47,803 nucleotides of DNA from positions 1 through 47,803 of IMG/VR virus record IMGVR_UViG_3300042465_003683; one strand, given 5' to 3'. Position numbers and translations under genes: made by a program. A model generated the notes under the pieces. That model made no database searches. It was not told the origin of the DNA and saw only the letters and a program-made list of their open reading frames with translations. This DNA is from a virus. Shown piece by piece: positions 1 through 37,995 of this stretch; position 1 is the stretch's first letter; each line of letters begins with the position of its first letter.

Positions 1-111
1 GGCACGCTGTTCACCTCTGACATGCTCTACGGTGTCAAGGCAATGCGTACTGCTGCAACCGTCGGCGCTGCAACATCGTCCTCGGCCTTTGCACTGGCTG
101 TTCCAGCCTAA
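1..111 (+). CDS. Major capsid protein, C-terminal fragment
   Basis: The last 36 codons of the coat protein, cut by the window start. They are identical to the end of the complete gene at 36031-37002, ending ...ALAVPA and a stop at 109-111. A GC-rich hairpin terminator follows directly. The role is taken from the complete copy. Confidence 0.9.
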   Translation, partial: GTLFTSDMLYGVKAMRTAATVGAATSSSAFALAVPA

Positions 112-118
112 TTAAACT

Positions 119-141
119 CCCCGGCTTCGGCCGGGGGTTTT
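119..141 (+). terminator. Intrinsic terminator after the coat gene
   Basis: A 7-bp perfect stem (119-125 with 130-136) closes a TTCG loop, giving the very stable cUUCGg tetraloop, followed by GTTTT. It lies between the coat and decoration genes. The lap B equivalent at 37010-37032 keeps the stem but has a TTAG loop and one more T. It probably reduces readthrough so that coat protein is made in excess (inference). Confidence 0.8.
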
Positions 142-162
142 CAACCTAATTAGGAGAACTTC

Positions 163-489
163 ATGGCAAATGCAACTTCCGTCGTGGTTCGGGCTGGTAA
201 TGACCAGTTCCGTGGCCTCTACACTAATACTTTTCTGGTTCGCGCAACGCTAGACGCCGATACTTTGGCTGATGGCGCAGGCGACACCGATACCGTAGCC
301 GTTCCTGGCGTAGTCTTGGGCGATATGGTGCTGTCGGCTTCGTTGGCGGTTGATGTGGCGGGTCTGATCGTGACCGCCTACGTCAGCGCTGCTAACGTGG
401 TCAGTATCCGTTTCCAAAACGAAACAGGCGCTGAAGTCAATTTGGCTTCCGCTACACTTCGTTTGGTCGTAGTACGTTCATTGGCGTAA
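163..489 (+). CDS. Probable capsid decoration/head protein
   Basis: A 108-residue protein encoded directly downstream of the coat protein, preceded by a clear AGGAG site. It is rich in Val, Ala, Thr and Asp in alternating patterns typical of an all-beta fold and has no membrane segment or cysteine. Small beta-rich proteins in this position commonly trimerise on HK97-fold capsids as cement or decoration proteins; that assignment is by position and composition, not by a motif. The lap B homologue (37054-37380) has the same length, with substitutions clustered near residues 22-35 and 72-98, such as TNTF to TSTW. Confidence 0.6.
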   Translation: MANATSVVVRAGNDQFRGLYTNTFLVRATLDADTLADGAGDTDTVAVPGVVLGDMVLSASLAVDVAGLIVTAYVSAANVVSIRFQNETGAEVNLASATLRLVVVRSLA

Positions 490-515
490 AAATTGGGGGC
501 GCAAGCCCCCAATTT
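490..515 (+). terminator. Hairpin between decoration and AT-hook genes
   Basis: A perfect 11-bp stem (490-500 with 505-515) capped by a GCAA loop, a GNRA-type tetraloop. It has no long U-tract, so it may act as an attenuator or RNA-stability element rather than a full terminator. Lap B has a hairpin at the same place (37385-37402) with different stem bases that still pair, so the structure is kept while the sequence changes. Confidence 0.6.
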
Positions 516-531
516 GCCGTTCGGAGGTTTT

Positions 532-735
532 GTGGCGACTTTCAAATGCTTGACCAGTGGCCAGACGGTCACGTTTATCTATCAGCACGACATCGACAGC
601 ATGAAAGGCCATCAAGGCTACGTGCGTATCGATGTGGCAGAAGGCCAGCAGGAAGAAACGCCGGTGGTAATTAACTTAACACCCCCGACCAAACGGATGG
701 GGCGGCCAAGGAAAATAGACAATGTCGGAAATTGA
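532..735 (+). CDS. Small protein with an AT-hook-like tail
   Basis: 67 residues starting at GTG 532, which follows CGGAGG. The in-frame TTG at 493 lies inside the hairpin and has no ribosome site, and the lap B copy has ATG at the matching place (37423). The N-terminal half (ATFKCLTSGQTVTF) looks like a small beta unit. The C-terminus carries KRMGRPRK, the G-R-P core of an AT-hook, which binds the minor groove of A/T-rich DNA. It may be a virion or DNA-associated protein; the function is unknown. It overlaps the next gene by 14 bases. Confidence 0.65.
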   Translation: MATFKCLTSGQTVTFIYQHDIDSMKGHQGYVRIDVAEGQQEETPVVINLTPPTKRMGRPRKIDNVGN

Positions 736-928
736 TCCAAGAGAATTCGGCAAACTAGAGGCGCAAGTCGAGTCATTGCAGGCAGAAGTTCATGGCCTGC
801 GAGACGACGTCAAGCAGCTGCTGGAGATGGCCAATAAGTCCAAAGGCGGCTTTTGGATGGGCATGACCATCGCGTCCGCTTTGGGCGGCATACTGACTTT
901 TGCTGCAGATAGACTGTTTTTCAAATAA
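722..928 (+). CDS. Small coiled-coil membrane protein
   Basis: 68 residues. Residues about 8-40 form a heptad-like coiled coil (KLEAQVESLQAEVHGLRDDV), then a short linker (NKSKGG), then one membrane helix at about 44-64 and a short basic end (DRLFFK). The topology is a tail-anchored protein with a cytoplasmic coiled coil. Such proteins are common in phage head-tail regions and are sometimes called holin-like, but a holin role is not shown and lysis genes lie elsewhere. The membrane half is nearly unchanged in lap B (37613-37819), while the coiled coil varies. Confidence 0.75.
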   Translation: MSEIDPREFGKLEAQVESLQAEVHGLRDDVKQLLEMANKSKGGFWMGMTIASALGGILTFAADRLFFK

Positions 929-939
929 GGGGTGACATC

Positions 940-1104
940 ATGCCAATGGTTGACGGAAAGAAGTACCCATACACGAAAAAAGGCAAGCAGGAAGCTGCTT
1001 CGGCCAAGATCAGCAAACTGCGCAAAGAGGGTTACCCGCAGAAACAGGCGGTAGCGATCGGGCTTAGCATGGCCGGCATGGCTAAGAAAAAGGCCAAGAA
1101 ATGA
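940..1104 (+). CDS. Small basic Lys-rich protein
   Basis: 54 residues, starting after an AAGGGGTGA site. The sequence begins MPMVDGKKYPYTKKGK and ends MAGMAKKKAKK. It is very basic, with no cysteine or membrane segment. Proteins with this pattern recur beside adaptor genes in environmental podoviruses, function unknown. A DNA-associated or capsid-interior role fits the charge (inference). The amino-acid sequence matches lap B (37831-37995), and the stop overlaps the next start as ATGA. Confidence 0.7.
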   Translation: MPMVDGKKYPYTKKGKQEAASAKISKLRKEGYPQKQAVAIGLSMAGMAKKKAKK

Positions 1105-1253
1105 AGGCCGGCTTGTATGCCAACATCAACGCCAAACAGGCACGCATTAAGGCTGGCTCTGGCGAGAAGATGAGAAAACCTGGCTCCAAAGGCGCGCCAA
1201 CTGCCGCTGCGTTTAAGGAATCCGCTAAAACGGCTAAACCGAGGAAAAAATGA
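1101..1253 (+). CDS. Small basic protein, lap A allele of a swapped slot
   Basis: 50 residues with the motif YANINAKQARIKAGSG followed by EKMRKPGSKGAPTA, a pattern seen in many phage small proteins; function unknown. It is linked by ATGA overlaps at both ends (1101-1104 and 1250-1253). In lap B the same slot (37992-38147) holds an unrelated protein of nearly equal length, while both flanking genes are conserved. The weak upstream purine run suggests translational coupling to the gene before it. Confidence 0.65.
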   Translation: MKAGLYANINAKQARIKAGSGEKMRKPGSKGAPTAAAFKESAKTAKPRKK

Positions 1254-1552
1254 AGACACCCGCTTGGCAAAGAAAAGCCGGTCAAAATGCAAAAGGCGGC
1301 TTGAATGCCAAGGGCAGGGAGTCTTATAATGCAACAACTGGGGGCAACCTCAAAGCGCCGGTGAAATCCGGCGACAACCCACGACGAGCTTCTTTTCTTG
1401 CCAGGATGGGCAACATGCCCGGTCCAGAGCGTGTAGACGGTAAGCCCACCCGGCTGCTGTTGTCCTTAAACGCTTGGGGCGCTACATCCAAGGCAGATGC
1501 AAAGGTAAAAGCTAAAGCTATATCCGCAAGGAATAAGGCGAAAAGCAAATGA
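1250..1552 (+). CDS. Conserved phage small protein (DUF6321-like)
   Basis: 100 residues. Conserved blocks are GGLNAKGRESYN, GGNLKAPV, RRASFLARMGNMPGPE and LSLNAWGA, followed by a basic Ala/Lys tail. I recognise this block order from a phage domain of unknown function, probably DUF6321; the family name is from memory. Start ATG 1250 follows GAGGAAAAA and overlaps the previous stop. Lap B (38144-38446) encodes an essentially identical protein from a slightly different DNA sequence, so it is under strong protein-level constraint. Confidence 0.75.
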   Translation: MKTPAWQRKAGQNAKGGLNAKGRESYNATTGGNLKAPVKSGDNPRRASFLARMGNMPGPERVDGKPTRLLLSLNAWGATSKADAKVKAKAISARNKAKSK

Positions 1553-2199
1553 CCTACCTAGAACTCGTCAACGATGTGTTAGCTCGCCTGCGGGAGACGC
1601 AGGTAACGACCGTCAACTTGACTACCTATTCTTCCCTCATTGGCAAATTCGTCAATGACGCTAAGCGCCAGATCGAGGACGCTTACGATTGGAACGCGCT
1701 TGGCCAAGAAATCACCTTTACCACGACATCGGCTACATACGAATATTCGTTGACTGGCGCCGGTCAGAAATTTCGCGTTACCAGCGATCCGCTAAACACC
1801 ACCAGCAATGTCGTCATGGAAGTCATTCCTGTTGGCGAGATGCGCCGCAAGCAGAACTTGCAGCCGCAAGTGACCGCCGTGCCTACCGAATATTGCTTCG
1901 AAGGTGTTGATGGCAACGGAGACGCCAAGGTACAACTGTGGGGACGCCCTAACGGCGTCTACTCCATCAAGTTTTTCCTGTCTATACCACAAGCCGCGCT
2001 GACTTCGGATTCAACGTCGGTGTTGGTGCCGGATGTGCTGGTAGCGCAGAACGCTTACGCCCGCGCTTTGGTTGAGCGCGGCGAAGATGGCGGCCTGAAC
2101 TCTTCAGAAGCCTACGCGCTGTATAAATCCATGCTGTCCGACTACATTGCTTTGGAAGCCACACGGTTCCCAGAAATGCAGGAGTTCTACGCCTCATGA
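1549..2199 (+). CDS. Head-tail adaptor protein (P22 gp4 / SU10 adaptor type)
   Basis: 216 residues beginning MTYLELVNDVLARLRE, the usual N-terminal helix of podoviral adaptors, with FVNDAKRQIEDAYDWN in the next helical block. In P22-like virions such proteins form a ring under the portal and close the DNA channel before the tail nozzle attaches. The gene sits directly before the nozzle gene and overlaps it by ATGA at 2196. Lap B (38443-39093) differs at only a few residues, for example near 16-26 and at the C-terminus (FYAS versus FYPS). Confidence 0.75.
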   Translation: MTYLELVNDVLARLRETQVTTVNLTTYSSLIGKFVNDAKRQIEDAYDWNALGQEITFTTTSATYEYSLTGAGQKFRVTSDPLNTTSNVVMEVIPVGEMRRKQNLQPQVTAVPTEYCFEGVDGNGDAKVQLWGRPNGVYSIKFFLSIPQAALTSDSTSVLVPDVLVAQNAYARALVERGEDGGLNSSEAYALYKSMLSDYIALEATRFPEMQEFYAS

Positions 2200-3755
2200 G
2201 CCAGCCACTGCGCATCGATACGATCTCGGCGCCAGGCTTTTACGGCCTGAACACCCAAGATTCGCCGCTTGATTTGAACGCGGGGTTTGCTTTGGTGGCG
2301 ACGAATTGCGTCATCGATCAGTATGGCCGGGTGGGCGCGAGAGCCGGCTGGTCTAAGGTCAACAGCAGCTCTGGCAATCTCGGTGCGAACGACCCCGGCG
2401 TCATCCATGAGCTGGTGGTCGCCGATGGCACGTACACAATCCTGTTTGCCGGCAACAACAAAATTTTTAAGCTCGATGGCAGCAATGCAGTTGTCGAGTT
2501 GACCTACGGGGGAGGGGGTACCGCCCCAACCATCACGGCCAACAACTGGCAGTGCGCGTCCCTTAATGGCATCACGTATTTCTTTCAGACAGGCCATGAC
2601 CCGCTGATCTACGATCCGGCAGTTAGCACCACGACCTACCGCCGCGTCAGTGAGAAGACGGGATACGCTGGCACGGTGCCGTCTGGCAATATCGTCATCT
2701 CAGCGTACGGTCGTCTGTGGATTGCCAATACTGCGGCGGACAAGCAAACTCTGACGTTCTCTGACTTGCTGGCCGGCCACATCTATACGGGCGGCACATC
2801 TGGCACGCTGAATGTGAACAATGTATGGCCTGCAGGACCCGATGAGATTGTCGGCTTGGCTGCGCATAACAACTTCCTAATCATCTTCGGTAAGCGCCAG
2901 ATACTGGTTTACCAGGGTGCGACAGCACCAGCGACGATGTCGCTAAACGATACGGTGGTCGGCATTGGCTGCATCGCGCGCGACTCGATTCAGCCTACCG
3001 CTACGGACGTTTTCTTCCTGTCTAACAGCGGCGTGCGTTCATTGATGCGCACAATTCAAGAAAAGTCCGCGCCGTTCCGGGATATCAGTAAGAACGTGCG
3101 TAACGATTTGATGGGGATCGTGGCCGGCGAGACGGCGGCAAATATTAAAGCCGTGTACTCGGAACTCAACGCGTTCTATCTGCTGACGTTACCAACCAAT
3201 CAGTCTGTCTACGTGTTTGATACGCGTGGATACTTACCTGACGGATCTGCGCGTGTGACGCAGTGGACATCGATTACGCCGTCTGCATTACTATCGCGCC
3301 GCAATGGCGACTTGCTGCTTGGGCAGACTGGCTACATTGGAAAGTACGGCACGTATTTAGATGACACAGCTGAGTACCGATTCCAGTATTTTACAAACCA
3401 CAGCGACTTGGGCGATCAGAGCGTTACATCCATATTGAAGCGCATCGGCGTTGTTGTCATTGGCGGCACGAACCAGTTTGTGACTATCAAATGGGGCTTC
3501 GATTTTAACGAAAACTATCTGTCGCAAAACACGCAGATTCCGACACAGCGTGTGTCCGAATATGGGGTAGCCGAATATGGCGCTAATGGCGTTCCTGTTG
3601 CGCAATACTCCAACGGTATTGCACTACAAACGCTATACGCGCAAGGTACGGGTACTGGCCGTATTGTTCAAACGGGCTATGAGGCTGACATTAATGCTTC
3701 GCCGCTGTCGATTCAAAAAATTGAAATTCTGTCGAAAAACGGAAGGGTGACATGA
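2196..3755 (+). CDS. Tail nozzle / head-closure protein (P22 gp10-like)
   Basis: 519 residues, largely beta, starting MSQPLRIDTISAPGFYGLNT. Blocks such as NTQDSPLDLNAGFALVATN, GRVGARAGW and a string of short beta repeats (YDPAVSTTTYRRV, FGKRQILVYQG) are typical of the beta-propeller tail nozzle / phage stabilisation family. It would attach to the adaptor ring and form the distal channel of a short tail. The lap B product has the same length with few substitutions despite many base changes. Its stop overlaps a possible 14-codon ORF found only in lap A. Confidence 0.75.
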   Translation: MSQPLRIDTISAPGFYGLNTQDSPLDLNAGFALVATNCVIDQYGRVGARAGWSKVNSSSGNLGANDPGVIHELVVADGTYTILFAGNNKIFKLDGSNAVVELTYGGGGTAPTITANNWQCASLNGITYFFQTGHDPLIYDPAVSTTTYRRVSEKTGYAGTVPSGNIVISAYGRLWIANTAADKQTLTFSDLLAGHIYTGGTSGTLNVNNVWPAGPDEIVGLAAHNNFLIIFGKRQILVYQGATAPATMSLNDTVVGIGCIARDSIQPTATDVFFLSNSGVRSLMRTIQEKSAPFRDISKNVRNDLMGIVAGETAANIKAVYSELNAFYLLTLPTNQSVYVFDTRGYLPDGSARVTQWTSITPSALLSRRNGDLLLGQTGYIGKYGTYLDDTAEYRFQYFTNHSDLGDQSVTSILKRIGVVVIGGTNQFVTIKWGFDFNENYLSQNTQIPTQRVSEYGVAEYGANGVPVAQYSNGIALQTLYAQGTGTGRIVQTGYEADINASPLSIQKIEILSKNGRVT

Positions 3756-3797
3756 GCGCGCTTCAGTTAGTCGCATATTTGAAACAAGGGGATTGAT

Positions 3798-4487
3798 TTG
3801 TCAAACTACACAAAATCAACGGATTTCGCCGCCAAAGATGCGCTGGCGTCCGGCAATGCGGCCAAGATTGTTAAGGGCACGGAGATTGACACCGAGTTTA
3901 ACAATATCGCTACAGCTATTGCCACCAAAGCTGATCTGGCCAGCCCTACGTTTACCGGCACGCCTGCGCTGCCTACCGGCACAACGGCAGTTACGCAGTC
4001 AACATCCGACGACAGCACAAAGTTGGCAACCACGGCGTTTGTGCAAGATATCGCTGACGCCATTAAAAGCGCGTTGTATCCCGTAGGTTCTATCTACACC
4101 AACGCAACTAGCAGCACTAATCCTGGTACGTTGTTGGGATTTGGTACGTGGACGGCATTCGGTGCTGGCCGCGTCATGGTTGGTTTGGACGCAAGCAATT
4201 CGCTGTTTGATACCGCAGAAGAAACGGGTGGATCGGCAAACGCAATCGTAGTAAGCCACACGCACACTGCTACGGTGACTGACCCAGGCCACTCGCACAC
4301 ATTTAATTATGAGCCAGGGTTGGCGCAAAATGGTTCTGGTAGAAATGGTGTGGGTGGTACAACACCGCAGTCAACAAGTTCTCAAGTCACTGGTATTAGC
4401 GTATCTAACAGCACGACTGGTTCTTCGGGCACCAACGCTAATTACCAGCCGTACATTACGGTTTATATGTGGAAGCGCACAGCATGA
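3798..4487 (+). CDS. Tail tip / fibre protein with hypervariable end
   Basis: 229 residues from TTG 3798 (AAGGGG upstream). The N-terminal part (SNYTKSTDFAAKDAL, AAKIVKGTEIDTEFN) is a common phage fibre attachment region. Residues 94-130 (YPVGSIYTNATSSTNPG and following) are collar-like. Histidine clusters SHTHT (153-157) and GHSHT (164-168) resemble metal-coordinating sites of trimeric fibre tips. Residues about 169-207 are unlike lap B, while the last 20 residues (ending YITVYMWKRTA) are conserved. The likely role is receptor contact at the tail tip. Confidence 0.7.
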   Translation: MSNYTKSTDFAAKDALASGNAAKIVKGTEIDTEFNNIATAIATKADLASPTFTGTPALPTGTTAVTQSTSDDSTKLATTAFVQDIADAIKSALYPVGSIYTNATSSTNPGTLLGFGTWTAFGAGRVMVGLDASNSLFDTAEETGGSANAIVVSHTHTATVTDPGHSHTFNYEPGLAQNGSGRNGVGGTTPQSTSSQVTGISVSNSTTGSSGTNANYQPYITVYMWKRTA

Positions 4488-4807
4488 TCGTCAAAAATTT
4501 ACTCGATCATCAGATTATTCATCACTTCTCTGATGGTATGTACGCTAAAGAGATGCGTGTAGAAGCAGGGCAAACTATTTTGAAGCACACGCATAACTTT
4601 AGCCACTTGTCGATTTTGGCTAGAGGACGTGTGGCCATATTAATCGGCGATGAGATAGAAGTTATTGAAGCGCCTGCGTGTATAGATGTCAAGGCAGGTT
4701 TAGTACATGGCATAAAATCCATTGAAGATTGTGTTTGGTATTGCATCCACGCCACTGACGAGAAAGATCCGGCAAAGGTGGATGAAGTTTTGATAAAGGG
4801 GTACTAA
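4484..4807 (+). CDS. Small cupin-fold protein
   Basis: 107 residues from ATG 4484, which overlaps the tail-tip stop. The motif KHTHNFSH (H35, H37, H41), followed by LSILARGRVAILIGDE and a later AGLVHGI, is the cupin pattern of two histidine-bearing beta motifs around a metal or ligand site. Always next to the tail-tip gene in both laps, it may be a chaperone or assembly factor for the fibre (inference). Lap B (41347-41670) is about 90% identical by eye, with the histidines unchanged. Confidence 0.65.
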   Translation: MIVKNLLDHQIIHHFSDGMYAKEMRVEAGQTILKHTHNFSHLSILARGRVAILIGDEIEVIEAPACIDVKAGLVHGIKSIEDCVWYCIHATDEKDPAKVDEVLIKGY

Positions 4808-4808
4808 C

Positions 4809-5903
4809 ATGCCAGTAACGGCAGCACTTATCGGCGGCGGCGCCAGCCTTTTAGGTGGTTTTCTAGGTGGAAAATCACAAGAAAAAGCCGCAAGGACTTC
4901 CGCAGCAGCGCAACTAGAAGCTGCGCGCATTGCGGCGGATGCCGCTCGATTCCGCCCCGTAGGTGTAACTACCCGGTTTGGGCAGAGTCAATTTCAATTT
5001 GACCCCAGCGGTAATTTGACAGGTGCTGGGTATCAGATTGACCCACGTCTGGCCGCGTACCAAGAACGCTTAGATACGCTGGCTGGCCAGCGGCTGAGTG
5101 AAGCTGAGATGGCGCCACAAGCCTACGCCCCGCTGCAGCGGGCTGGGCAGCAGCTGTTTCAGCTGGGCGGTCAGTACCTAGCTGAGACGCCTGAACAGGT
5201 GGCCGAGCGCTACATGGCGCGTCAGATGGATTTGTTAGCACCCAGCCGTGAACGTCAGTACGCGCAGCTGCAGAACCAACTATTCCAGACTGGCCGTGGC
5301 GGCTTGTCTGTTGGCGCTACTGGCATGCGACCAGGCGGTGGTGCTGGGCTTGGCGCGTCTAATCCTGAGTTGGAAGCGTACTACAACGCCTTGGCGCAGC
5401 AAGATGCGCAGCTGGCAGCGCAAGCCCAACAGGAAGGCCAGCGTCAGCTGGCGTTTGGCACCGGTCTGTTTGGCCAAGGCGCAGGTTTGCTGGGTGGTTA
5501 CGAGTCGGGCGTCACGGGCGCGCTGAGTCCGTTCACGACCACAATAGGTGGCATCTCGACGCTAGAGAGCCTGGGTCAGCAGCCGCTGGATATCGGCGCT
5601 CAGCTGGGCGGTCGTGCAGCGCAGGCAGGCGCCAACGTGGGTCAGTCGTTGTTGCAGGGTGGTGTGAGCGCTGCTAAAACAACGCAGGCTGGGCAGTTTG
5701 ATCCAATGTCTGCGGCATTGATGGGTTTTGGTAGCAGCCGAGCATTGACTAGAGGGGCAGCAAATCTATTTGGTAAGCGTCAATTAACGCCTTCTGATTA
5801 CAGTAATTTGTCTTCATGGCAGGCAAGTCAATACGCTGATTATGGCCCCGATAGTTCGCAATACTACCAATACCCTAGCGTTTGGGGTGAGTTTGGCCCT
5901 TGA
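4809..5903 (+). CDS. Probable DNA-ejection (internal virion) protein 1
   Basis: 364 residues with a Gly/Ala-rich hydrophobic N-terminus (residues 4-22, glycine-zipper style, ALIGGGASLLGGFLGG), then an Ala/Gln-rich helical body with FRPVGVTTRFG, LAPSRERQYAQLQNQL, and a Gly-rich segment. The first of three consecutive Gln/Ala-rich genes after the tail proteins, matching the order of the three P22 ejection proteins (gp7, gp20, gp16), which leave the head with the DNA and form a channel in the host envelope. Assignment is by position and composition. The last 60 residues differ strongly from lap B. Confidence 0.55.
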   Translation: MPVTAALIGGGASLLGGFLGGKSQEKAARTSAAAQLEAARIAADAARFRPVGVTTRFGQSQFQFDPSGNLTGAGYQIDPRLAAYQERLDTLAGQRLSEAEMAPQAYAPLQRAGQQLFQLGGQYLAETPEQVAERYMARQMDLLAPSRERQYAQLQNQLFQTGRGGLSVGATGMRPGGGAGLGASNPELEAYYNALAQQDAQLAAQAQQEGQRQLAFGTGLFGQGAGLLGGYESGVTGALSPFTTTIGGISTLESLGQQPLDIGAQLGGRAAQAGANVGQSLLQGGVSAAKTTQAGQFDPMSAALMGFGSSRALTRGAANLFGKRQLTPSDYSNLSSWQASQYADYGPDSSQYYQYPSVWGEFGP

Positions 5904-5917
5904 TTTAAGGATAAGTT

Positions 5918-7780
5918 ATGGCAACCAGTGATATCTTAGGTCTGTTCATGTCGCCTGAACAATATCAGGCGCAGCAGTTAGCGCAGCAGCAAGCGGATGA
6001 ACAAACGCGCGCGATTAATTTCGCTAATCTTGACCCTAGAGGGCAAGCCAACTACGGCGTGTTTTTAGGCGCGCAGCAGCTGGGTCGCGGCTTTGGTGGT
6101 TTGCTGGGCGTGCAAGACCCACAGCTGCAACGCATCCGCCAGCGGCAGGAGATCATGCAGACGATCAACCCTGCAGACCCTGAGTCGCTCATGGCTGGTA
6201 TCCAGCGCGCGTCGCAAGCTAATGACCAAGAGCTGGCGCTGACGCTGGCTGATTATGCGCGTAAGGCGAGGGGTGACTTAGCGTTGGCTGAACAGCGCGA
6301 AAGAGAAAAAGTACCTGAAGCCATACAGATCGCTGAAGAAATTCGCAAATTGACTGTGAAGCGAGATGCTCTACCTGAAGGTCTGGAACGTAACTCTATT
6401 GACGCTAAAATAAAGCGCTTGCAACTAGCTCAAAAAGCCACTGGGTCAACGGAAACCGCAGAGTATAAGAACGCGTTTCAACTTACCGTTTCGGAAAATC
6501 CAGCGCTTGCTACTGATTCTGATGCGTTTAAGCAAAAACTTTCTTCTAACTACAATAAGTTATTGTTTAAAGACAAAGCTGATAAGACCACCGAACTTAA
6601 AGATTTACTTGAGAAGCGCGAAGTTGCTGTGCGCGAGTTTGGAGTAACTTCATACGCAGTACAATCCATTGAAAGGCTTATTGAATCTATAGCGCCGCTA
6701 AAAGGGACAGCGGATACAAAAACAGAAGCAGTGCGGACTGCTGAAGCTTTTGCAGATGTCGTGAGCCCCGACCGTAACTCAACAGAATGGAAAGAGGCGT
6801 TTAAATCACAGTTAGCCAAAAAAGACGATACACCTAAACAGTTTGAGAGCGATTTTATTGCAGATAAAATTGTCGAACTGCGTAAAAAAATACGTGAAGC
6901 TAAAGATCCTACGGCACCTGAAGTTTTGGAGGCTAAAGATAAACTCAGCGTATTAGAGGCGCAAATTAAAAAAGACAAACCTAACCTTACGGTTGTGGGT
7001 GAAGTTAGGTCTGGTCCAGATAAAGGAAAAACTGTCTATGCTGATGAAAATAAAGATCAACAGTTTATTTATTCCGCCGATTCAACTGGAAAACAAGTAC
7101 GTAAGTTAATATCTGACGCGGATGTTAGCCGCTTGACATCGCAAGTAACTGCAACCGCTAGTTCGTCTGGCTCGCTAACAGAAAAAACCATTGTTAAGGG
7201 CGTGGCGGAGTTGGATGTTGAAGACCTTAAAACAGCCAGAGCTAATAAGAAGGCAGCAAGCGCGTCTAATGACTCATTAAGACAACTACTCTCACTAAGC
7301 GATCAAGGTTTGATTAGCGGATCGTTTGCCTCTGGTAGGGTGGGTGCCACTAACCTTCTTAACACATTAGGCATACTTAATAAAACAAGCGCAGATAATC
7401 TATCTAGATCAGAGCAGTATCAGAAGATAGGAGCCGATCTGGTGTTTAATGCTTTGCAAGGTAAGCTTGGGCCTGGAGTATCGGAAGGCGATCGCGTATT
7501 TATTACCGAACTATTCCCCAAACTTGAAAATAGCGCTGCAGCGCGACGTGAACTTATACGATATGTAGCAGAAAAGAATAACAAGATAATATCTGAAGCT
7601 GACGCTGTAGAGGCTTACATACGTAAAAACCCAGACAAAGGGCTTTCAGGGTTTAAGTCGCTAAATAGCGGGGCGTTTCATGTCCCATCTAATAAAATTG
7701 ATTTGTCTACTATGTCTCCTCAAGACTTAAAAGCCTTGGAGCAAAAACTATTGAAAGATAAAAAAGGGGGTAGACAATAA
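5918..7780 (+). CDS. Probable DNA-ejection protein 2, lap A allele
   Basis: 620 residues. Residues 1-115 (DILGLFMSPEQYQAQQ..., GVQDPQLQRIRQRQEIM) are close to lap B; beyond that the two alleles diverge sharply and this part is visibly A/T-richer than the flanking genes. A helical module (YKNAFQLTVSENPALATDS) and a degenerate second unit (TEAVRTAEAFADVVSP) match tandem modules that are clearer in the lap B allele. There are no enzyme motifs. Probably an elongated helical protein ejected with DNA. The stop shares its final A (7780) with the next start. Confidence 0.5.
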   Translation: MATSDILGLFMSPEQYQAQQLAQQQADEQTRAINFANLDPRGQANYGVFLGAQQLGRGFGGLLGVQDPQLQRIRQRQEIMQTINPADPESLMAGIQRASQANDQELALTLADYARKARGDLALAEQREREKVPEAIQIAEEIRKLTVKRDALPEGLERNSIDAKIKRLQLAQKATGSTETAEYKNAFQLTVSENPALATDSDAFKQKLSSNYNKLLFKDKADKTTELKDLLEKREVAVREFGVTSYAVQSIERLIESIAPLKGTADTKTEAVRTAEAFADVVSPDRNSTEWKEAFKSQLAKKDDTPKQFESDFIADKIVELRKKIREAKDPTAPEVLEAKDKLSVLEAQIKKDKPNLTVVGEVRSGPDKGKTVYADENKDQQFIYSADSTGKQVRKLISDADVSRLTSQVTATASSSGSLTEKTIVKGVAELDVEDLKTARANKKAASASNDSLRQLLSLSDQGLISGSFASGRVGATNLLNTLGILNKTSADNLSRSEQYQKIGADLVFNALQGKLGPGVSEGDRVFITELFPKLENSAAARRELIRYVAEKNNKIISEADAVEAYIRKNPDKGLSGFKSLNSGAFHVPSNKIDLSTMSPQDLKALEQKLLKDKKGGRQ

Positions 7781-9930
7781 TGGCTGAACCCACACTGGAG
7801 CAAGTACAAGAAGAAATGCGTCGGCAGGGTATTCCTGTCAGTACCGAGTCTGTCATGGATGAACGCGGTACAACTTCTGGTGAGTTTTTAAAAGGTTTTG
7901 AGGCAATTGCTAAAGGAATACCTAAAGGTGTTCTTAATATGATTGGTGGGTGGGGTAATCTATATGATTTAGCGCGTAAATCCAAAGACCCTAATGTACT
8001 TTCAACTGCCGGTTTAGCGCGTCTTATAAAAGACGTGACCGGCGTTGATATATTAACTATTCCGGGCTATCGCGGTGCGTATGAGTTTGGCGAAGCGGGC
8101 GCGCCTGCTACTGCGTTTAGCTTGCTAGGCGTACCGGGTCTTTTTAGCCGCAGTCCTGCCGGTCTTGCCGGTGAATTCGGCGCTGCTGGAACGACTTCAA
8201 TGGCAGCACAACAAATTGCGCCCGAAAGCCCCTTAGTTCAGATGGGTTTGATGATGGCGCCTTACGGCGCAAAGGCGATGTACAAAGGCACGCAAGGCAT
8301 GATCACCAAGCCGCGCGGCACGTATCCGACAGAAGCCGAGATTAGCGAGCTGCTGCGCGTAGGCCGGATTACACCCGGCGAGGCCAGTCTGTTCCGCAAC
8401 CAGTTGGCTACAGAAGCACGCGTAGCGGCAGCGCCCGAGTCAGGACAAGCGCCAGTGCAATTCCGTATTGAACAGGCAAGGGATGTTGAGTCGTTCTTGA
8501 CTAATCTGTTTGAGCGCGCTGCTGGCGCGTCTGTTGATACAGCTCGCGCGCAGCAAGTTACGGGCACTATTGTGGATGCGTTTAAGAACTACGGCAAAAC
8601 GCTGTCCGGCAAATTGCGCTCCGACGCCAAGAAAGATTTTAACGCCGCCAAGGCATCTGGCGGGCAGGTAGATACGACACCGATTGTTGACCGTGTACGC
8701 GCGCAGTTGGCCAGCCTTGTACCTGAAGACCCGACATCTGGGTCATTGAGACAGTCGCTTGACAACATCTTAAAGGAATACGTAGACCCCGGCGCAGCAG
8801 CGTCGGTGACGCCGTCCGCTATAGTTGGCCCAACTGGCCAGCCTGCGTCGGTAAACATCACACCGGCTAGAGCGCCGTCGAACAAACCCATCAGCATTGG
8901 CCGTTTGCAAGACAATCTTGCTATCTGGGGTGAAGCGGCGTATTCCGGTAAAGCCGACTTTGGCAAAGGCAACATTTTTGAAAATGTGGCGCCTGGCAAA
9001 GCAAAAGGCATCGCATTGTCGGTGCTGCGCGGCTTCAAGGAATCGTTGGATGAGGCCATCAACAACAACATACCTGGCGCTGACAAGTTAAAAGCAGCGC
9101 GCGACAATTTCGCTGCCAATATCGACCGCGTTGAGGAGTTTGCTGAGCGTCCATTGACCAAGGCTTTTGATGTACAGAACGTCAGCCAGCTGGTGCCGGA
9201 AGACGTGTTGAATAAACTTAAACGGATGCCACCATCGCAACGCGCCGTCTTAATTGACGTCATGCAGAACAGTCCTAACTCGCAAGTCAATGGGGTGCTA
9301 GAGACATTGCGTCGCGCGCAGATGGACGACGTGTTGAGCCGTGGCCGTCAGGGCGCGGCGGGTGCATCGGCGCTAGATCCTGAATTTAGTCTTGGCCAAG
9401 CATTGCGCGCATTGCAGCGTAAAGGCGACTTAGCGGATCTATTCCCCAATCCCACTGATTTAGCAGACGCGCAGTTGGCTGTTAAATACCTACAGCGTGT
9501 GATGAGCAAAGAATCTGCAGCTGGGGCAGGTGGTGTATCGGGCGGCGCAGTGTTTGGTACAGCGCGAGGTGGAGGCGCTAACCCTCAACAAGCCTTGCTG
9601 TTGCGTGAAATAACAAACTTTGCACGCAGCATTATTGCTAGCCCCGAAGCGTTCTCGAAAGTCATCTTTGACCCAAATAACCGCAAGTTGATTACCGATC
9701 TGGCTAAAGGCAAAACCAAAGGCGACCGGGCGATAGACGCGCTAAACCTACTAAAACGCGGCACTCTCCAAGTAGGTACGCGCGGCGTTGCGTCGTCTGA
9801 AACCACGCCTACGGTTGTTGAAGAGCGATCCTTGCCGGCACTTGAATTTGGGTATGACCGTAATGAAGAACCTACATTAGAGCAGGTGCAAGAAATTATG
9901 CGCCAGCAAGGCATACCAACGGAGCAATAA
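7780..9930 (+). CDS. Probable DNA-ejection protein 3, lap A allele
   Basis: 716 residues, Ala-rich and mostly helical, with a hydrophobic Gly/Ala/Pro stretch at about 105-160. A short motif appears at both ends: EPTLEQVQEEMRRQGIP (residues 3-19) and EPTLEQVQEIMRQQGIP (near 697-713), so the chain begins and ends with the same tag. Lap B's counterpart is 907 residues and has an unrelated N-terminal tag, though both end just before the AUU-started gene. No peptidoglycan-hydrolase signature is visible. Third in the ejection-protein trio by order. Confidence 0.5.
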   Translation: MAEPTLEQVQEEMRRQGIPVSTESVMDERGTTSGEFLKGFEAIAKGIPKGVLNMIGGWGNLYDLARKSKDPNVLSTAGLARLIKDVTGVDILTIPGYRGAYEFGEAGAPATAFSLLGVPGLFSRSPAGLAGEFGAAGTTSMAAQQIAPESPLVQMGLMMAPYGAKAMYKGTQGMITKPRGTYPTEAEISELLRVGRITPGEASLFRNQLATEARVAAAPESGQAPVQFRIEQARDVESFLTNLFERAAGASVDTARAQQVTGTIVDAFKNYGKTLSGKLRSDAKKDFNAAKASGGQVDTTPIVDRVRAQLASLVPEDPTSGSLRQSLDNILKEYVDPGAAASVTPSAIVGPTGQPASVNITPARAPSNKPISIGRLQDNLAIWGEAAYSGKADFGKGNIFENVAPGKAKGIALSVLRGFKESLDEAINNNIPGADKLKAARDNFAANIDRVEEFAERPLTKAFDVQNVSQLVPEDVLNKLKRMPPSQRAVLIDVMQNSPNSQVNGVLETLRRAQMDDVLSRGRQGAAGASALDPEFSLGQALRALQRKGDLADLFPNPTDLADAQLAVKYLQRVMSKESAAGAGGVSGGAVFGTARGGGANPQQALLLREITNFARSIIASPEAFSKVIFDPNNRKLITDLAKGKTKGDRAIDALNLLKRGTLQVGTRGVASSETTPTVVEERSLPALEFGYDRNEEPTLEQVQEIMRQQGIPTEQ

Positions 9931-9931
9931 A

Positions 9932-10642
9932 ATTGACCCGCTCACCCTTCTGGCCGCAGCCAACGCGGCAGTGGCTGCAGTCAAGAAGGGATGCCAGCTC
10001 TACAAGGACATCAAGGGCGCCGCAGGCGAGGTTAAGGATGTACTGGATGATCTGAAGGCGCAGTTCGGGAAGATTCAAAACCCGACAAACGCACAGAAGA
10101 TCCAGTACAACGAAGAAGTACAGCGGGTTCAGGAGATTGGCAGGGCTGATCCCAACGACGTATTCATCCAGATCGGCACCGACTTAGGCGCCCTGATGGA
10201 CGAGTACGACAAGATCGGCAAGGTCTTTATCCAGCAGGAAGCGGAAGCGACGCAGGTCTACACAGGTACGGATTCGGTTGGCAAGCGGGCGCTAATGCGT
10301 GTCATCGTCCGGTCAAGGTTAGACGCCATGCTGGCGGAGCTGCGTGAGACGATGGTCTACAAAGCACCGCCCGAACTAGGCGCGTTGTGGACCAAGTACG
10401 AAGCGATGTGGAAGCAGATTGTCATTGAGCAGGATCAGGCACACAAGCGGGAAACCGCGAAGATGCAGATTGAAGCGGCGCGGCAACGCAGGTTGAGAAG
10501 GAAAAGGAAGGAAGAGGCGGTATGGGTTGGAGCAATCCTTTTCGTCGTGGCGTGGTACGTCGGAGTCCTCCTGCTTCTTCGTCTGAGTCAGACGTACCGT
10601 GGGCATTACTCGTCGCCGTGGTGGTCTTGTGTTTTGTGCTAG
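9932..10642 (+). CDS. Coiled-coil protein with C-terminal membrane helix, AUU start
   Basis: 236 residues if started at ATT 9932, which lies 7 bases after GGAG; reading gives M/I-DPLTLLAAANAAV. The alternative GTG 9971 has no ribosome site, and TTG 9933 is in another frame. Features are an amphipathic N-terminus, a long helical body (YNEEVQRVQEIGRADPNDV), a basic stretch (RQRRLRRKRK, about 184-193) and one membrane helix (196-217). The family is common in environmental phages, function unknown; the position suggests lysis or ejection. Its last 121 bases overlap the next gene in another frame. The lap B start region is nearly identical (47358). Confidence 0.65.
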   Translation: MDPLTLLAAANAAVAAVKKGCQLYKDIKGAAGEVKDVLDDLKAQFGKIQNPTNAQKIQYNEEVQRVQEIGRADPNDVFIQIGTDLGALMDEYDKIGKVFIQQEAEATQVYTGTDSVGKRALMRVIVRSRLDAMLAELRETMVYKAPPELGALWTKYEAMWKQIVIEQDQAHKRETAKMQIEAARQRRLRRKRKEEAVWVGAILFVVAWYVGVLLLLRLSQTYRGHYSSPWWSCVLC

Positions 10643-10773
10643 TGATCGCGCTGCCGGTGATGGGCGTCATGTACATGGACATGAATAACGCGTTGTACCG
10701 CGCGGCGGACGAAACCCGCAAGATGAAAGAATTACGGCTAAAAGTTTTACGGGAAATGAGGGGTGAAGAATGA
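10522..10773 (+). CDS. Small membrane protein overlapping its upstream neighbour
   Basis: 83 residues starting inside the preceding gene after AAGAGGCGG. A Ser/Pro/Arg-rich head (about 1-24) is followed by a strong membrane helix (about 26-52, WALLVAVVVLCFVLVIALPV) and a charged helical tail (ETRKMKELRLKVLREMRG). The 121-base overlap codes in two frames. It stands directly before the endolysin and overlaps it by ATGA, so a role in lysis, for example as a holin or holin regulator, is plausible but not shown. Confidence 0.6.
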   Translation: MGWSNPFRRGVVRRSPPASSSESDVPWALLVAVVVLCFVLVIALPVMGVMYMDMNNALYRAADETRKMKELRLKVLREMRGEE

Positions 10774-11408
10774 TCACGTTGCAGCAATTTAAGCAGTTAG
10801 TCCCCAACACCAAATACCCACAGCAGTGGTACGACGCCTTGTTCGGCAAGCAGACTGAGTTGGGCGGCAAGACCTTGCTTGCTGAGTACGAAATCACCAC
10901 CCCCAAACGCATCGCAGCGTTTATGGCGCAATGCGGGCATGAGTCGGGCGGGTTCGTCTGGCTGACCGAGAATCTGAACTACAGTGCGGCAGGGCTGCGC
11001 AAGACGTTTGCCAAATATTTCCCCGACGACGCTACCGCCAACGCTTACGCCCGCCAGCCGGACAAGATTGCCAACCGCGTCTATGCCAACCGCATGGGCA
11101 ACGGCGACGAGGCGTCCGGTGACGGCGCCCGGTACAAGGGCAGAGGTCTCATCCAGGTCACCGGCAAAGACAACTATTTCTGGTTTGCGTCGTCGCTGGA
11201 GATCACGCCAGAGGCGGCTGCCGAGTACATGCAGACCTTCGAGGGTGCAGCGCAGAGCGCCTGCTGGTACTGGGAGAATACGAGCTTGAACAAGCTGGCA
11301 GATGCTGGCGACATCTTGACTATGACTAAGCGGATTAACGGAGGAACCATTGGACTCGCAGATCGTCAAAAACATTACGCTCATGCTTTGCATGTGCTGG
11401 GCGCTTAG
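10770..11408 (+). CDS. Endolysin, glycoside hydrolase family 19
   Basis: 212 residues. GH19 hallmarks are AAFMAQCGHESGGF with catalytic-type E58, WLTENLNYSA with E67, and the substrate-loop motif YKGRGLIQVTGKDNY. Phage GH19 enzymes cut the MurNAc-GlcNAc glycan of peptidoglycan. The length is that of a single catalytic domain with no cell-wall-binding domain and no signal peptide, so it needs a holin to cross the membrane. The 3' end overlaps the lipoprotein gene starting at 11350. One of the most secure calls here. Confidence 0.92.
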   Translation: MITLQQFKQLVPNTKYPQQWYDALFGKQTELGGKTLLAEYEITTPKRIAAFMAQCGHESGGFVWLTENLNYSAAGLRKTFAKYFPDDATANAYARQPDKIANRVYANRMGNGDEASGDGARYKGRGLIQVTGKDNYFWFASSLEITPEAAAEYMQTFEGAAQSACWYWENTSLNKLADAGDILTMTKRINGGTIGLADRQKHYAHALHVLGA

Positions 11409-16948: not shown

Positions 16949-17575
16949 ATGTCATTCGCTATAGCAAACCTGCCAAACGTATCCGCGCTCACTACTGCGC
17001 TTCGTTCATTGGAACAAGATGTCGGCGCCGTTGGCTCCGTCATTCTGAAGATGGACAAGGGCGGCCACTGGGTCTACGGTGCGAACCAAAGCGAAGTTGA
17101 AGACGGCACCACATGGGCAGTCAATCCTATGTCGTTCGTTCACGGCTTCATCGCATGGGGTGAGGGTGAAGTGCTGGCCGAGAAGATGGTGCCAGTCACT
17201 GAGCCACGTCCTGAAGTCGGTGTTGCGCCGCCTGATGCGAAGAAGGGCTGGGAAGTGCAGGTTGGAATGGGGTTAAAATGCTTGAGCGGTCAGGACAAGG
17301 ACTTGGAGGTGCGCTACACCGTCACGTCTGTGGGTGGTAAGCGCGCTGTCCAGCAGCTGGGCGTTGCGATTGCTACGCAAGTCGAAACTGATCAAAGCAA
17401 GCCTGTGCCGGTTGTGCGTCTAAAAAAAGACCACTATCAGCACAAGTCGTACGGCAAGATCTACACACCGGTCTTTGAGATCGTTGAGTGGATCAGCATG
17501 GATGGCAAATCGACCGACGCAGTTGAAGAGACTGCTGACGCCGAAGCCGCACCTGCCCGCCGCCGTCGCGGCTAA
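16949..17575 (+). CDS. Probable ssDNA-binding protein (DUF2815-like role)
   Basis: 208 residues between the DUF2800 nuclease and the DNA polymerase, where phage modules of this type normally encode a DUF2815 or other single-strand-binding protein. Beta-rich with aromatic and basic residues (GHWVYGANQSEVEDGTTWAV, VNPMSFVHGFIAWGEGEV) and a low-complexity tail (ETADAEAAPARRRRG) rather than the acidic tip of classical SSB. The sequence family was not recognised with certainty, so the role rests mainly on gene order. AAAGGAAA precedes the start. Confidence 0.6.
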   Translation: MSFAIANLPNVSALTTALRSLEQDVGAVGSVILKMDKGGHWVYGANQSEVEDGTTWAVNPMSFVHGFIAWGEGEVLAEKMVPVTEPRPEVGVAPPDAKKGWEVQVGMGLKCLSGQDKDLEVRYTVTSVGGKRAVQQLGVAIATQVETDQSKPVPVVRLKKDHYQHKSYGKIYTPVFEIVEWISMDGKSTDAVEETADAEAAPARRRRG

Positions 17576-17594
17576 GTAGCATGGGGGAAAGCGG

Positions 17595-17714
17595 ATGCTG
17601 GGGAAGTCAGAATTCACCACTGACGACGAGAAAGAACCAGACGCAGCGAGTACCCCACCTTTCAATGGCTCCTGTCATTTAATCATCAGGTTTTCCTTGG
17701 TCGGTTCGGCCTGA
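17595..17714 (+). CDS. Possible leader ORF before the DNA polymerase
   Basis: 39 codons from ATG 17595, six bases after GGGGGA. The peptide starts MLGKSEFTTDDEKEPDAAS and ends in a hydrophobic segment. Its last third runs through the left arms of the nested hairpin and stops inside the inner right arm, so a translating ribosome would open the hairpin that covers the polymerase ribosome site. This could be a coupling leader or chance. A second ORF (17581-17682) reads another frame of the same stretch. Confidence 0.25.
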   Translation: MLGKSEFTTDDEKEPDAASTPPFNGSCHLIIRFSLVGSA

Positions 17715-17736
17715 TGCTGGCGGATGACAGGAGCCA
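17666..17736 (+). promoter_or_regulatory. Nested hairpin covering the polymerase ribosome-binding site
   Basis: Outer stem of 13 perfect pairs (17666-17678 with 17724-17736) and inner stem of 7 perfect pairs (17684-17690 with 17710-17716) around a 19-base loop. The only good Shine-Dalgarno for the polymerase, AGGAG at 17729-17733, is inside the right outer arm, 12 bases before ATG 17746. Folding would hide it. T4 DNA polymerase is known to repress its own translation through a hairpin next to its ribosome site; a similar control is inferred here. A replication-origin hairpin is an alternative. Confidence 0.6.
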
Positions 17737-17745
17737 CCCTCTACC

Positions 17746-19689
17746 ATGACAATACTTTATTGCGATTTCGAAACCCGGTCGAAGTGCGACCTATCCTCAC
17801 GGGGAGTCTATAACTATGCCCAAGATGGAACCACGGATGTACTGTGTATGTCCTACGCGTTTGACGACGATGAGGTTGTCACCTGGACTCCCGACCAGCC
17901 GTTCCCTGACGCTGTTCGGCATCACAAGGGGCCAATCTATGCTCATAACGCTGCGTTCGAGCGCCTTATATTCTGGTACGTCCTACAAGTTAATTTCGAT
18001 CTCACGCAGTTCTATTGCACAGCGGCACAAGCGCGTGCTAACTGCCTGCCTGGGTCTCTCGAAGACGTCGGACGCGCCATCTCCAGCGTCATGCGCAAAG
18101 ACCACCGAGGAAACCAACTTATTCGATTGCTTTCCATCCCACGTAGCGATGGAACTTTTAACAACGACCCAGCGTTGATGGCTGAGATGGTCCAATATTG
18201 CGAACAAGATGTCCGTGCCATGCGCGCGATTTCCAAGGCCATGCGCCCGCTCTCAGACGAGGAGCTAGCCGACTACCACACCAACGAGCGCATTAACGAC
18301 CGTGGCGTCTTGCTCGACCTGCCACTGGCGCACGCCGCCATCCGTTACGCGGAGGCCGAGAAAGCGGAGATTGAGAATCTTGTCGTCGAGTTGACCGAGG
18401 GTGAGATCGCGTCCGTGCGCAGCCCGAAGATGAAAAAGTGGGTGATGGATCGCATCAAACCGCAGGCGTTGAAGTTGATGGAGACTTACAAAGACGGCGA
18501 GTTGAAGTACAGTATCGACAAGACTGTACGCGCCAATCTGCTAACGTTTGCCAAGGAGAACCCCGATGAGATTCCGACCCATGTTGCGGACGTCATTCAA
18601 TGTGCAGATGATCTCTGGGCGTCGTCGGTTGCGAAGTTCGGCCGCCTTGCGAGCCTGGCAGATGAAGACGATCAACGAGTACGAGGTGCTTTTGTCTTTG
18701 CGGGAGGATCTGCCACTGGACGTGCTTCAAGCTATGGCGCGCAGGTTCACAACTTTAGCCGCGTCTGCGCCAAACAGCCCGACGATGTTAGGCACGCTAT
18801 GGTCAGAGGCCACAGCATCACCCCAGGATTTGGAAAACGCGTTACAGATGTTCTCAAGGGAATGCTCCGGCCCGCACTGATCGCAGCGCCCGGTAAGCAG
18901 TTCGTTGTCGCCGACTGGTCGGCCGTGGAGGCCAGAGTCACCGCATGGGCGTCAGCCGATCCACAGGCCGAGGACGTGTTGGACACCTTCCGCGCAGGCA
19001 AAGACATTTACATCCGCGAGGCCGCCGGTATCTACCGTGTGCCGTACGAGGACATCACCGACGAGCAGCGCCAGATCGGCAAGGTCGCCATCCTGTCGCT
19101 GGGCTTCGGTGGGTCGGTGGGCGCCTTCACGGCGATGGGTCGGGTCTATAAGGTCTACATGCCCGAGTCCGATTCGCGCCGCATTGTGGACGCCTGGCGC
19201 CGCGCAAACTCATGGGCAGTACGTTACTGGGGCAAGCTCGAAGAGGCGTACACAAGGGCGCTGCGCAATCCTGGGCGCGAATTCTCAGCCGGGCGGGTGA
19301 CGTACCTGTTCCAAGGACAGCATCTTTGGTACGCGCTACCGTCCGGTCGCATCCTGTGCTATCCATTTGCTAAGTTTGAGGGTGACGAGATCACCTACGT
19401 CAAAGCCGCCTGGAAACCTGCAGCGGATGCGAAGGAATGGCCACGCGCCCGCTTGTGGCGAGGGCTCGCCTGTGAGAACATAACGCAGGCGATCGCCAAC
19501 GATCTGCTGCGGCATGCTTTACGCCAATTAGATGACGTAGTGCTGCACGTACATGATGAGATCGTTCTGGAGACGGCCGACCCTGATGCACCCAATACCC
19601 TAAAGCGAGTAATGTGCACTGCGCCCGACTGGGCTGCAGGGCTTCCCTTGAACGCCGAAGTCGAAGTAATGAATCGATACGGCAAATAA
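17746..19689 (+). CDS. Family A DNA polymerase with 3'-5' exonuclease
   Basis: 647 residues. Exonuclease motifs: YCDFETRS (D7, E9), AHNAAFE (N68-E72) and YCEQD (Y151, D155). Polymerase motif A VVADWSAVEAR (D390, E395, R397), motif B RQIGKVAILSLGFGG (R442, K446, G455), motif C VHDE (H603, D604, E605). The residue aligned with E. coli Phe762 is Leu450; the one aligned with Tyr766 is Phe454. No 5'-3' nuclease domain, as usual for phage enzymes. It copies the phage genome together with the downstream primase-helicase. Start chosen because the exonuclease motif begins at residue 5. Confidence 0.93.
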   Translation: MTILYCDFETRSKCDLSSRGVYNYAQDGTTDVLCMSYAFDDDEVVTWTPDQPFPDAVRHHKGPIYAHNAAFERLIFWYVLQVNFDLTQFYCTAAQARANCLPGSLEDVGRAISSVMRKDHRGNQLIRLLSIPRSDGTFNNDPALMAEMVQYCEQDVRAMRAISKAMRPLSDEELADYHTNERINDRGVLLDLPLAHAAIRYAEAEKAEIENLVVELTEGEIASVRSPKMKKWVMDRIKPQALKLMETYKDGELKYSIDKTVRANLLTFAKENPDEIPTHVADVIQCADDLWASSVAKFGRLASLADEDDQRVRGAFVFAGGSATGRASSYGAQVHNFSRVCAKQPDDVRHAMVRGHSITPGFGKRVTDVLKGMLRPALIAAPGKQFVVADWSAVEARVTAWASADPQAEDVLDTFRAGKDIYIREAAGIYRVPYEDITDEQRQIGKVAILSLGFGGSVGAFTAMGRVYKVYMPESDSRRIVDAWRRANSWAVRYWGKLEEAYTRALRNPGREFSAGRVTYLFQGQHLWYALPSGRILCYPFAKFEGDEITYVKAAWKPAADAKEWPRARLWRGLACENITQAIANDLLRHALRQLDDVVLHVHDEIVLETADPDAPNTLKRVMCTAPDWAAGLPLNAEVEVMNRYGK

Positions 19690-37002: not shown

Positions 37003-37009
37003 TTAAACT

Positions 37010-37032
37010 CCCCGGCTTAGGCCGGGGGTTTT
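37010..37032 (+). terminator. Terminator after the coat gene, lap B
   Basis: Same 7-bp stem as at 119, TTAG loop, followed by a longer T-run (GTTTTT). The first difference between the laps (37019) lies in this loop. Confidence 0.8.
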
Positions 37033-37053
37033 TAACCTAATTAGGAGAACATC

Positions 37054-37380
37054 ATGGCAAATGCAACATCCGTCGTCGTCCGCGCTGGCAATGACCAGTT
37101 TCGCGGTCTTTACACTAGCACCTGGCTGGTTCGTGCCACTCTCAACGCTGACAGCTTGTCTGACGGCGCTGGTGACACCGATACCGTAGCTGTTCCCGGT
37201 GTGGCACTCGGTGACATGGTTTTGTCGGCTTCTCTGGCAGTGGATGTGGCGGGTCTTATCGTCACAGGCTATGTCAGCGCAGCAGACACCGTTAGCATCC
37301 GGTTCCAGAACGAAACCGGCGGCACCGTTGATCTGGCGTCGTCCACACTTCGTCTCGTAATCGCACGTTCATTGGCGTAA
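37054..37380 (+). CDS. Probable capsid decoration protein, lap B
   Basis: 108 residues, same start context as 163-489 and the same beta-rich composition. Differs at about 15 positions, mostly surface-type (NTF/STW, ADT/SDG, TAYVSAANV/TGYVSAADT, AEVN/GTVD). The framework NATSVVVRAGNDQFRGLYT and DTDTVAVPGV is unchanged. Confidence 0.6.
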   Translation: MANATSVVVRAGNDQFRGLYTSTWLVRATLNADSLSDGAGDTDTVAVPGVALGDMVLSASLAVDVAGLIVTGYVSAADTVSIRFQNETGGTVDLASSTLRLVIARSLA

Positions 37381-37384
37381 AAGC

Positions 37385-37402
37385 CGGGGGCTTTGGCCCC
37401 CG
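37385..37402 (+). terminator. Hairpin between decoration and AT-hook genes, lap B
   Basis: 7-bp stem (37385-37391 with 37396-37402), TTTG loop. Its outer pairs differ from those of lap A (490-515) yet still pair. Confidence 0.55.
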
Positions 37403-37422
37403 TCTTGCCATCAGGAGGTTTC

Positions 37423-37819: not shown

Positions 37820-37830
37820 GGGGTGACATC

Positions 37831-37995
37831 ATGCCAATGGTTGACGGAAAGAAGTACCCATACACGAAAAAAGGCAAGCAGGAAGCTGCTTCGGCCAAGA
37901 TCAGCAAGCTGCGCAAAGAGGGCTACCCGCAGAAACAGGCGGTAGCTATCGGGCTTAGCATGGCCGGCATGGCCAAGAAAAAGGCCAAAAAATGA
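37831..37995 (+). CDS. Small basic Lys-rich protein, lap B
   Basis: 54 residues identical to 940-1104 at the protein level, with only a few silent base changes. It is the last conserved gene before the swapped slot. Confidence 0.7.
   Translation: MPMVDGKKYPYTKKGKQEAASAKISKLRKEGYPQKQAVAIGLSMAGMAKKKAKK

What the first reader, a model, noticed from the sequence alone, without database searches (positions are those of the whole stretch)
17666..17745. Nested hairpin hides the DNA polymerase ribosome site
A 13-bp perfect outer stem and a 7-bp inner stem stand in the 170-base gap before the polymerase, with AGGAG inside the right arm. A 39-codon ORF (17595-17714) ends within the inner right arm, so its translation would open the stem. 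T4 polymerase is controlled by a hairpin at its ribosome site; this is a candidate independent example in a family A polymerase, possibly with a leader peptide.
Basis: partly seen in the sequence, partly recalled or inferred. Interest (0 to 1): 0.7.

Follow-up and report, generated by a model that had tools for sequence, protein, structure and literature searches.

The report
Conserved mRNA hairpin before phage polymerase
In a group of phages known mainly from metagenomes, the messenger RNA just before the DNA-polymerase gene carries a hairpin that evolution has clearly kept; it probably controls how the next gene is translated or processed, and it sits beside a second, apparently undescribed RNA structure found once per genome in many unrelated phages.

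Summary
The hairpin is real and exactly where described (arms 17666-17678/17724-17736; inner 17684-17690/17710-17716). Forty-six distinct relatives show 97.9% of pair cells paired, 10 of 20 pairs with changes on both sides, and 59 G·U against 2 A·C cells. It is therefore a selected mRNA-strand RNA structure, not a DNA origin. Its apical loop CCUUGGUCGG is invariant. The 39-codon ORF is not conserved (2-52 codons in relatives). The right arm keeps GG(A/G)G in 46/46 (1 parsimony change against 7 in its partners), 11-13 nt before the next start in about three quarters, but 22-25 nt in the rest. In 15/46 loci the next gene is a methylase, HNH endonuclease or other gene, not polA, so a polymerase-specific T4-type operator is unlikely. 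Best reading: a clade-specific cis element that limits or times expression of the gene after the ssb-like gene, by hiding its start region and/or as an RNA-processing site; function is untested. Next to it lies a second structured RNA (17583-17656) that matches no Rfam family: 30 of 32 whole phage records have it, 29 once, usually just after a stop codon, often of an ssDNA-binding-protein gene. That neighbour is the more novel discovery.

The parts
17666..17678 (+). Hairpin B, left arm of outer 13-bp stem (TGGCTCCTGTCAT)
   Evidence: covaries with right arm in 46 sequences
17684..17690 (+). Hairpin B, left arm of inner 7-bp stem (CATCAGG)
   Evidence: 100% of cells paired, 3 of 7 pairs with changes on both sides
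17695..17704 (+). Invariant apical loop of hairpin B, CCTTGGTCGG (possible CC/GG mini-stem around UUGGUC)
   Evidence: 46/46 identical; zero parsimony changes; fold
17710..17716 (+). Hairpin B, right arm of inner stem (CCTGATG)
17724..17736 (+). Hairpin B, right arm of outer stem (ATGACAGGAGCCA)
17730..17733 (+). GGAG in right arm; GG(A/G)G in 46/46 relatives; candidate sequestered Shine-Dalgarno, 12 nt before polA ATG
17665..17682 (+). Mini-ORF MAPVI* starting at the foot of hairpin B (candidate, weak)
   Evidence: ATG in 45/46 relatives; third-position bias p=0.006 by entropy but 0.10 by parsimony
17583..17656 (+). Element A: second structured RNA. P1 17583-17586/17653-17656, core AAAGCGGATG 17588-17597 and CAGCGAGTA 17644-17652, variable hairpin P3 between
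17595..17714 (+).
16949..17575 (+). Upstream gene, probably an ssDNA-binding protein (OB-fold-like model, weak matches to SSB structures)
   Evidence: PHROG 9528
17746..19689 (+). polA, family A DNA polymerase

Best explanation
Hairpin B is a cis-acting RNA element of the polycistronic mRNA between the ssb-like gene and the next gene, usually polA. SHOWN: the structure is under selection as RNA on the sense strand, has an invariant loop, is confined to this phage clade, always follows element A, and ends about 9 nt before the next start codon in roughly three quarters of cases. INFERRED: with its right arm (GGRG) and foot inside the 30S landing zone, the folded hairpin keeps translation of the next gene low compared with the upstream ssb-like gene. 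Opening of the left arm raises it; this could come from ribosomes translating the mini-ORF that starts at its foot, from a factor that reads the invariant loop, or from RNA cleavage. It acts on whichever gene stands downstream, not on polymerase alone.
For: Covariation in 46 distinct sequences: 97.9% of cells paired, 10/20 pairs with changes on both sides, 0/500 shuffles, slid controls collapse. G-U 59 cells against A-C 2 means sense-strand RNA. Fold -38.7 kcal/mol, z -6.0. GGRG in the right arm has 1 parsimony change against 7 in its left-arm partners. Next start is 11-13 nt after GGRG in 32-35/46, and inserted genes take over the same position. In most loci where another gene separates B from polA, polA has an ordinary strong SD, whereas directly after B no SD stands outside the stem. 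B-less relatives start polA about 10 nt after element A.
Against: No expression or probing data. In 11-14/46 loci GGRG is 22-27 nt from the start, often with an A-rich spacer, so hiding of an SD cannot be the only role. A 12-nt SD spacing is already long. The invariant loop is not explained by simple occlusion. Relatives that lack B manage polA without it, so it is not essential.
Confidence: 0.45

Rival explanations
1. RNA-processing or stability site: hairpin B (about 20 bp in two helices with an internal loop), with element A beside it, is cut by RNase III or a similar enzyme, separating an abundant ssb mRNA from the polA mRNA, as at T7 intercistronic RNase III sites or the lambda sib retroregulator (both from general knowledge).
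For: Two-helix length and internal loop resemble an RNase III substrate; intercistronic position; retained whichever gene follows; element A lies a fixed 6-10 nt after the stop codon in most cases.
Against: RNase III needs no conserved loop, yet CCUUGGUCGG is invariant; GGRG is constrained on one side only. No cleavage data.
Confidence: 0.25
2. A and B together form a phage-encoded functional RNA acting in trans or with a host factor; B is a clade-specific add-on to A, and its position before polA is incidental.
For: A is present in 30 of 32 whole records of unrelated phages, once in 29 of them, with an invariant core and exchanged variable arms; B always follows A.
Against: B starts and ends at the boundaries of the coding genes, and its distance to the next start is constrained; A in other phages occurs without B.
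Confidence: 0.12
3. Autogenous operator: the family A polymerase binds the hairpin and represses its own translation, an independent analogue of T4 gp43.
For: polA is the next gene in 31/46; an invariant loop suggests a sequence-reading ligand.
Against: B is kept when another gene lies between it and polA (15/46); relatives with 70-80% identical polymerases lack B.
Confidence: 0.08
4. Leader-peptide control by the 39-codon ORF proposed by the first reader.
For: The frame exists in the window and ends in the inner right arm.
Against: Length 2-52 codons and unrelated sequence in relatives, because it starts in the core of element A and runs through its hypervariable arm.
Confidence: 0.02
5. DNA-level hairpin: replication origin, recombination or homing-endonuclease target.
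For: Perfect palindromic arms; the junction is a slot for HNH endonucleases and methylases.
Against: G-U pairs are tolerated and A-C are not on the mRNA strand (59 against 2), which DNA function does not predict; no clear GC-skew switch at the site.
Confidence: 0.05

Closest known systems
T4/RB69 gene 43 (DNA polymerase) translational operator
   Same: Hairpin with a conserved loop in the leader of a phage DNA-polymerase gene, near its ribosome site (PMC3014915).
   Different: Family A, not the T4/RB69 type polymerase; 20 bp and a different loop (CCUUGGUCGG, not UAAC); not tied to polA; polymerase binding untested.
Phage hairpins that sequester a ribosome-binding site (general kind)
   Same: Purine GGRG held in a stem just before a start codon.
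   Different: Spacing 11-13 or 22-25 nt; invariant apical loop; preceded by a second structured RNA.
T7 intercistronic RNase III sites and lambda sib (own knowledge)
   Same: Two-helix hairpin with internal loop between genes of an operon or after a stop codon.
   Different: Sequence-invariant loop and one-sided constraint on GGRG; cleavage untested.
STAXI motif (PMC2864571)
   Same: Conserved structure near genes of ssDNA-binding proteins.
   Different: STAXI is a repeated pseudoknot in tandem; A and B are single hairpins, once per genome; no Rfam match in the stretches scanned.
L17 downstream element (PMC2864571)
   Same: A structured RNA proposed to act from the 3' UTR of the gene before it, as element A may.
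   Different: Other genes, organisms and sequence; no Rfam match.

Membership tests
T4 gp43-type autogenous polymerase operator | Hairpin in the leader of the DNA-polymerase gene | tested here: met
   31/46 loci
T4 gp43-type autogenous polymerase operator | Tied to the polymerase gene it regulates | tested here: not met
   15/46 have another gene next; close relatives lack it
T4 gp43-type autogenous polymerase operator | Bound by its own polymerase | not testable with these tools
   Needs purified protein
RBS-sequestering translational attenuator | Structure conserved as RNA on the mRNA strand | tested here: met
RBS-sequestering translational attenuator | SD-like sequence in the stem, conserved beyond pairing need | tested here: met
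   GGRG 46/46; 1 against 7 parsimony changes
RBS-sequestering translational attenuator | SD at functional distance from the start | tested here: inconclusive
   11-13 nt in 32-35/46, 22-27 nt in the rest
RBS-sequestering translational attenuator | Stem disruption raises expression | not testable with these tools
   Needs a reporter
Leader-peptide attenuator (39 codons) | Conserved leader ORF | tested here: not met
Leader-peptide attenuator (mini-ORF MAPVI*) | Conserved leader ORF with coding signature | tested here: inconclusive
   Start 45/46; codon-position bias p 0.006 (entropy) or 0.10 (parsimony)
RNase III processing site | About two turns of dsRNA with cleavage | tested here: inconclusive
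   About 20 bp present; cleavage not testable here
Intrinsic terminator | Hairpin followed by a T run | tested here: not met
   None called at 17576-17745
Any Rfam 15 family | Score at or above gathering threshold | tested here: not met
   permissive searches gave only chance-level matches

The most novel reading that the evidence does not exclude
The ssb-polA leader carries two new RNA families. Element A is a trans- or host-directed structured RNA kept as a single copy by many unrelated phages just behind an ssDNA-binding-protein gene, and its hypervariable arm is swapped between phages. Element B is a lineage-specific switch inserted after A that uses a five-codon ORF to open the stem and pass ribosomes on to the replication genes.
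Probability: 0.2. Interest if true: 0.8.

Novelty: new variant of a known kind. Interest (0 to 1): 0.5.

Why it matters
It shows by comparison, not by folding alone, that a family A phage polymerase gene has a selected RNA structure at its start. That gives a testable case of post-transcriptional control of replication genes outside the T4 group. The neighbouring element A looks like an undescribed RNA class shared once per genome by unrelated phages, which points to a common function in phage replication or host takeover that can now be tested.

Tried and rejected
The 39-codon leader ORF was rejected by comparison. A DNA origin was rejected by strand asymmetry of non-Watson-Crick pairs and lack of a clear skew switch. 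An intrinsic terminator was rejected because none was called there. Known RNA families were sought with curated and permissive cut-offs and gave nothing. Element A was sought in cultured phages with one A sequence (chance matches only). In bacterial genomes only a handful of credible copies turned up among 38 pattern matches, in a betaproteobacterial, a Limnohabitans, a Pelomonas, a Comamonas and one Armatimonadetes-labelled contig. Proof that the upstream gene is an SSB by profile comparison or sequence search of solved structures failed; the predicted structure gave mostly SSB folds but only weakly (E 0.015 or worse). Literature searches found no description of either element in the open library.

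Full report
WHAT IS THERE. Between the stop of an ssb-like gene (16949-17575) and the start of polA (17746-19689) lie 170 nt. They hold two structured elements. Hairpin B is the one reported: outer arms 17666-17678/17724-17736 (13 bp, perfect), inner arms 17684-17690/17710-17716, AGGAG at 17729-17733. It folds at -38.7 kcal/mol, z -6.0.

B IS A SELECTED RNA. Relatives of the polymerase in IMG/VR and a loop-pattern scan gave 46 distinct hairpins. On these, 97.9% of cells pair, 10 of 20 pairs show changes on both sides, no shuffle of 500 reaches the observed values and sliding the partners destroys the signal. Neighbouring inner-stem pairs are swapped (C-G/A-U to U-A/G-C). Non-Watson-Crick cells include 59 G-U and 2 A-C, so the sense strand as RNA is the selected molecule; this argues against an origin or DNA recognition site. 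The loop CCUUGGUCGG is identical in all 46. A covariance model finds B only at this place: in the window's clade, and in none of 99 other loci, nearly all from other phages that carry A.

WHAT LIES DOWNSTREAM. B always follows A. The next gene is polA in 31 of 46; in 15 it is another gene, among them C5 methylases and NUMOD4/HNH endonucleases, mostly starting at the same distance from B. GG(A/G)G in the right arm is invariant and has one parsimony change against seven in its four left-arm partners, so it is held by more than pairing. Its distance to the next start is 11-13 nt in 32-35/46 and 22-27 nt in the others (the range reflects three loci where an upstream ATG is the likelier start). When a gene separates B from polA, polA usually has an ordinary SD; directly behind B it has none outside the stem. 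A start 14 nt or less behind element A likewise lacks an SD (median -2.2 kcal/mol, as random sequence), while starts 15-35 nt behind it have normal ones (-5.4).

LEADER PEPTIDE. The 39-codon frame starts at the ATG of the element A core and runs through its variable arm; in relatives it is 2-52 codons. A mini-ORF at the foot of B, M[A/T][P/L]V[I/T] and stop in most, has its start in 45/46. Third codon positions vary most (p 0.006 by entropy), but only p 0.10 by parsimony on a tree, and the ATG flanks are equally conserved. It is a possible opener of the stem, not a shown one.

MECHANISM. The simplest reading of position, one-sided GGRG constraint and free exchange of the downstream gene is a cis element that holds down translation of the gene after the ssb-like gene until the left arm is opened. 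What opens it (ribosome, factor reading the loop, nuclease) is not shown. RNA processing is the main rival. Autogenous repression by the polymerase, as in T4 (PMC3014915), is possible but unlikely since the hairpin is not tied to polA.

ELEMENT A. Core gAAAGCGGAUG...(ACG|UG)CAGCGAGUA; the four P1 pairs covary strongly (99.5% paired, all four with changes on both sides). In 32 whole virus records of 36-90 kb, chosen from polymerase relatives and A-bearing contigs, 30 have it; 29 have one copy and one has a second weak match. It begins 6-10 nt after the upstream stop codon in most cases. Of 67 upstream proteins, four separate PHROG ssDNA-binding families account for up to 22 (6+5+4+7 by family counts; per-protein examples show no overlap), far above the one or two in a hundred expected if A fell behind a random phage gene (inference). 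Identical 28-34-nt variable arms occur in phages with unrelated upstream genes, so the element is exchanged. No Rfam match. Credible host-genome copies are few and mostly in Burkholderiales contigs.

LIMITS. All evidence is comparative; function was not tested. The 46 sequences are related, though the sliding control keeps relatedness. The identity of the upstream protein as an SSB in this window rests on gene order and weak fold matches. Novelty is judged against Rfam 15 and the open literature library only.

Noticed in passing
window 17583-17656: Element A: a structured RNA with no Rfam match, present in 30 of 32 whole phage records (once in 29), directly behind a stop codon and often an ssDNA-binding-protein gene of unrelated families.
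   Followed up: yes
L001, L116, L198; L084, L117; L093, L134: Identical 28-34-nt variable arms of element A in phages whose upstream genes are unrelated, suggesting exchange of the element or its arm.
   Followed up: partly
window 1-11000 and 36900-47803: Head and tail of the window are homologous at 82-94% identity but not identical; the contig probably joins two related, circularly permuted genomes of about 36.9 kb.
   Followed up: partly
L202, L215, L246, L264, L010 between B and polA: The junction before polA is a cargo slot for C5 methylases and NUMOD4/HNH endonucleases, placed behind hairpin B.
   Followed up: partly
L020, L047, L053, L058, L062, L076, L078 upstream of polA: Polymerase relatives without A and B have other, dissimilar hairpins in the same ssb-polA gap (some strongly stable, others not), hinting at convergent structure there.
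   Followed up: partly
L081, L146, L165 downstream of A: A second, shorter structure ending in AGTACCCCC follows A in these phages, perhaps a diverged second copy.
   Followed up: no
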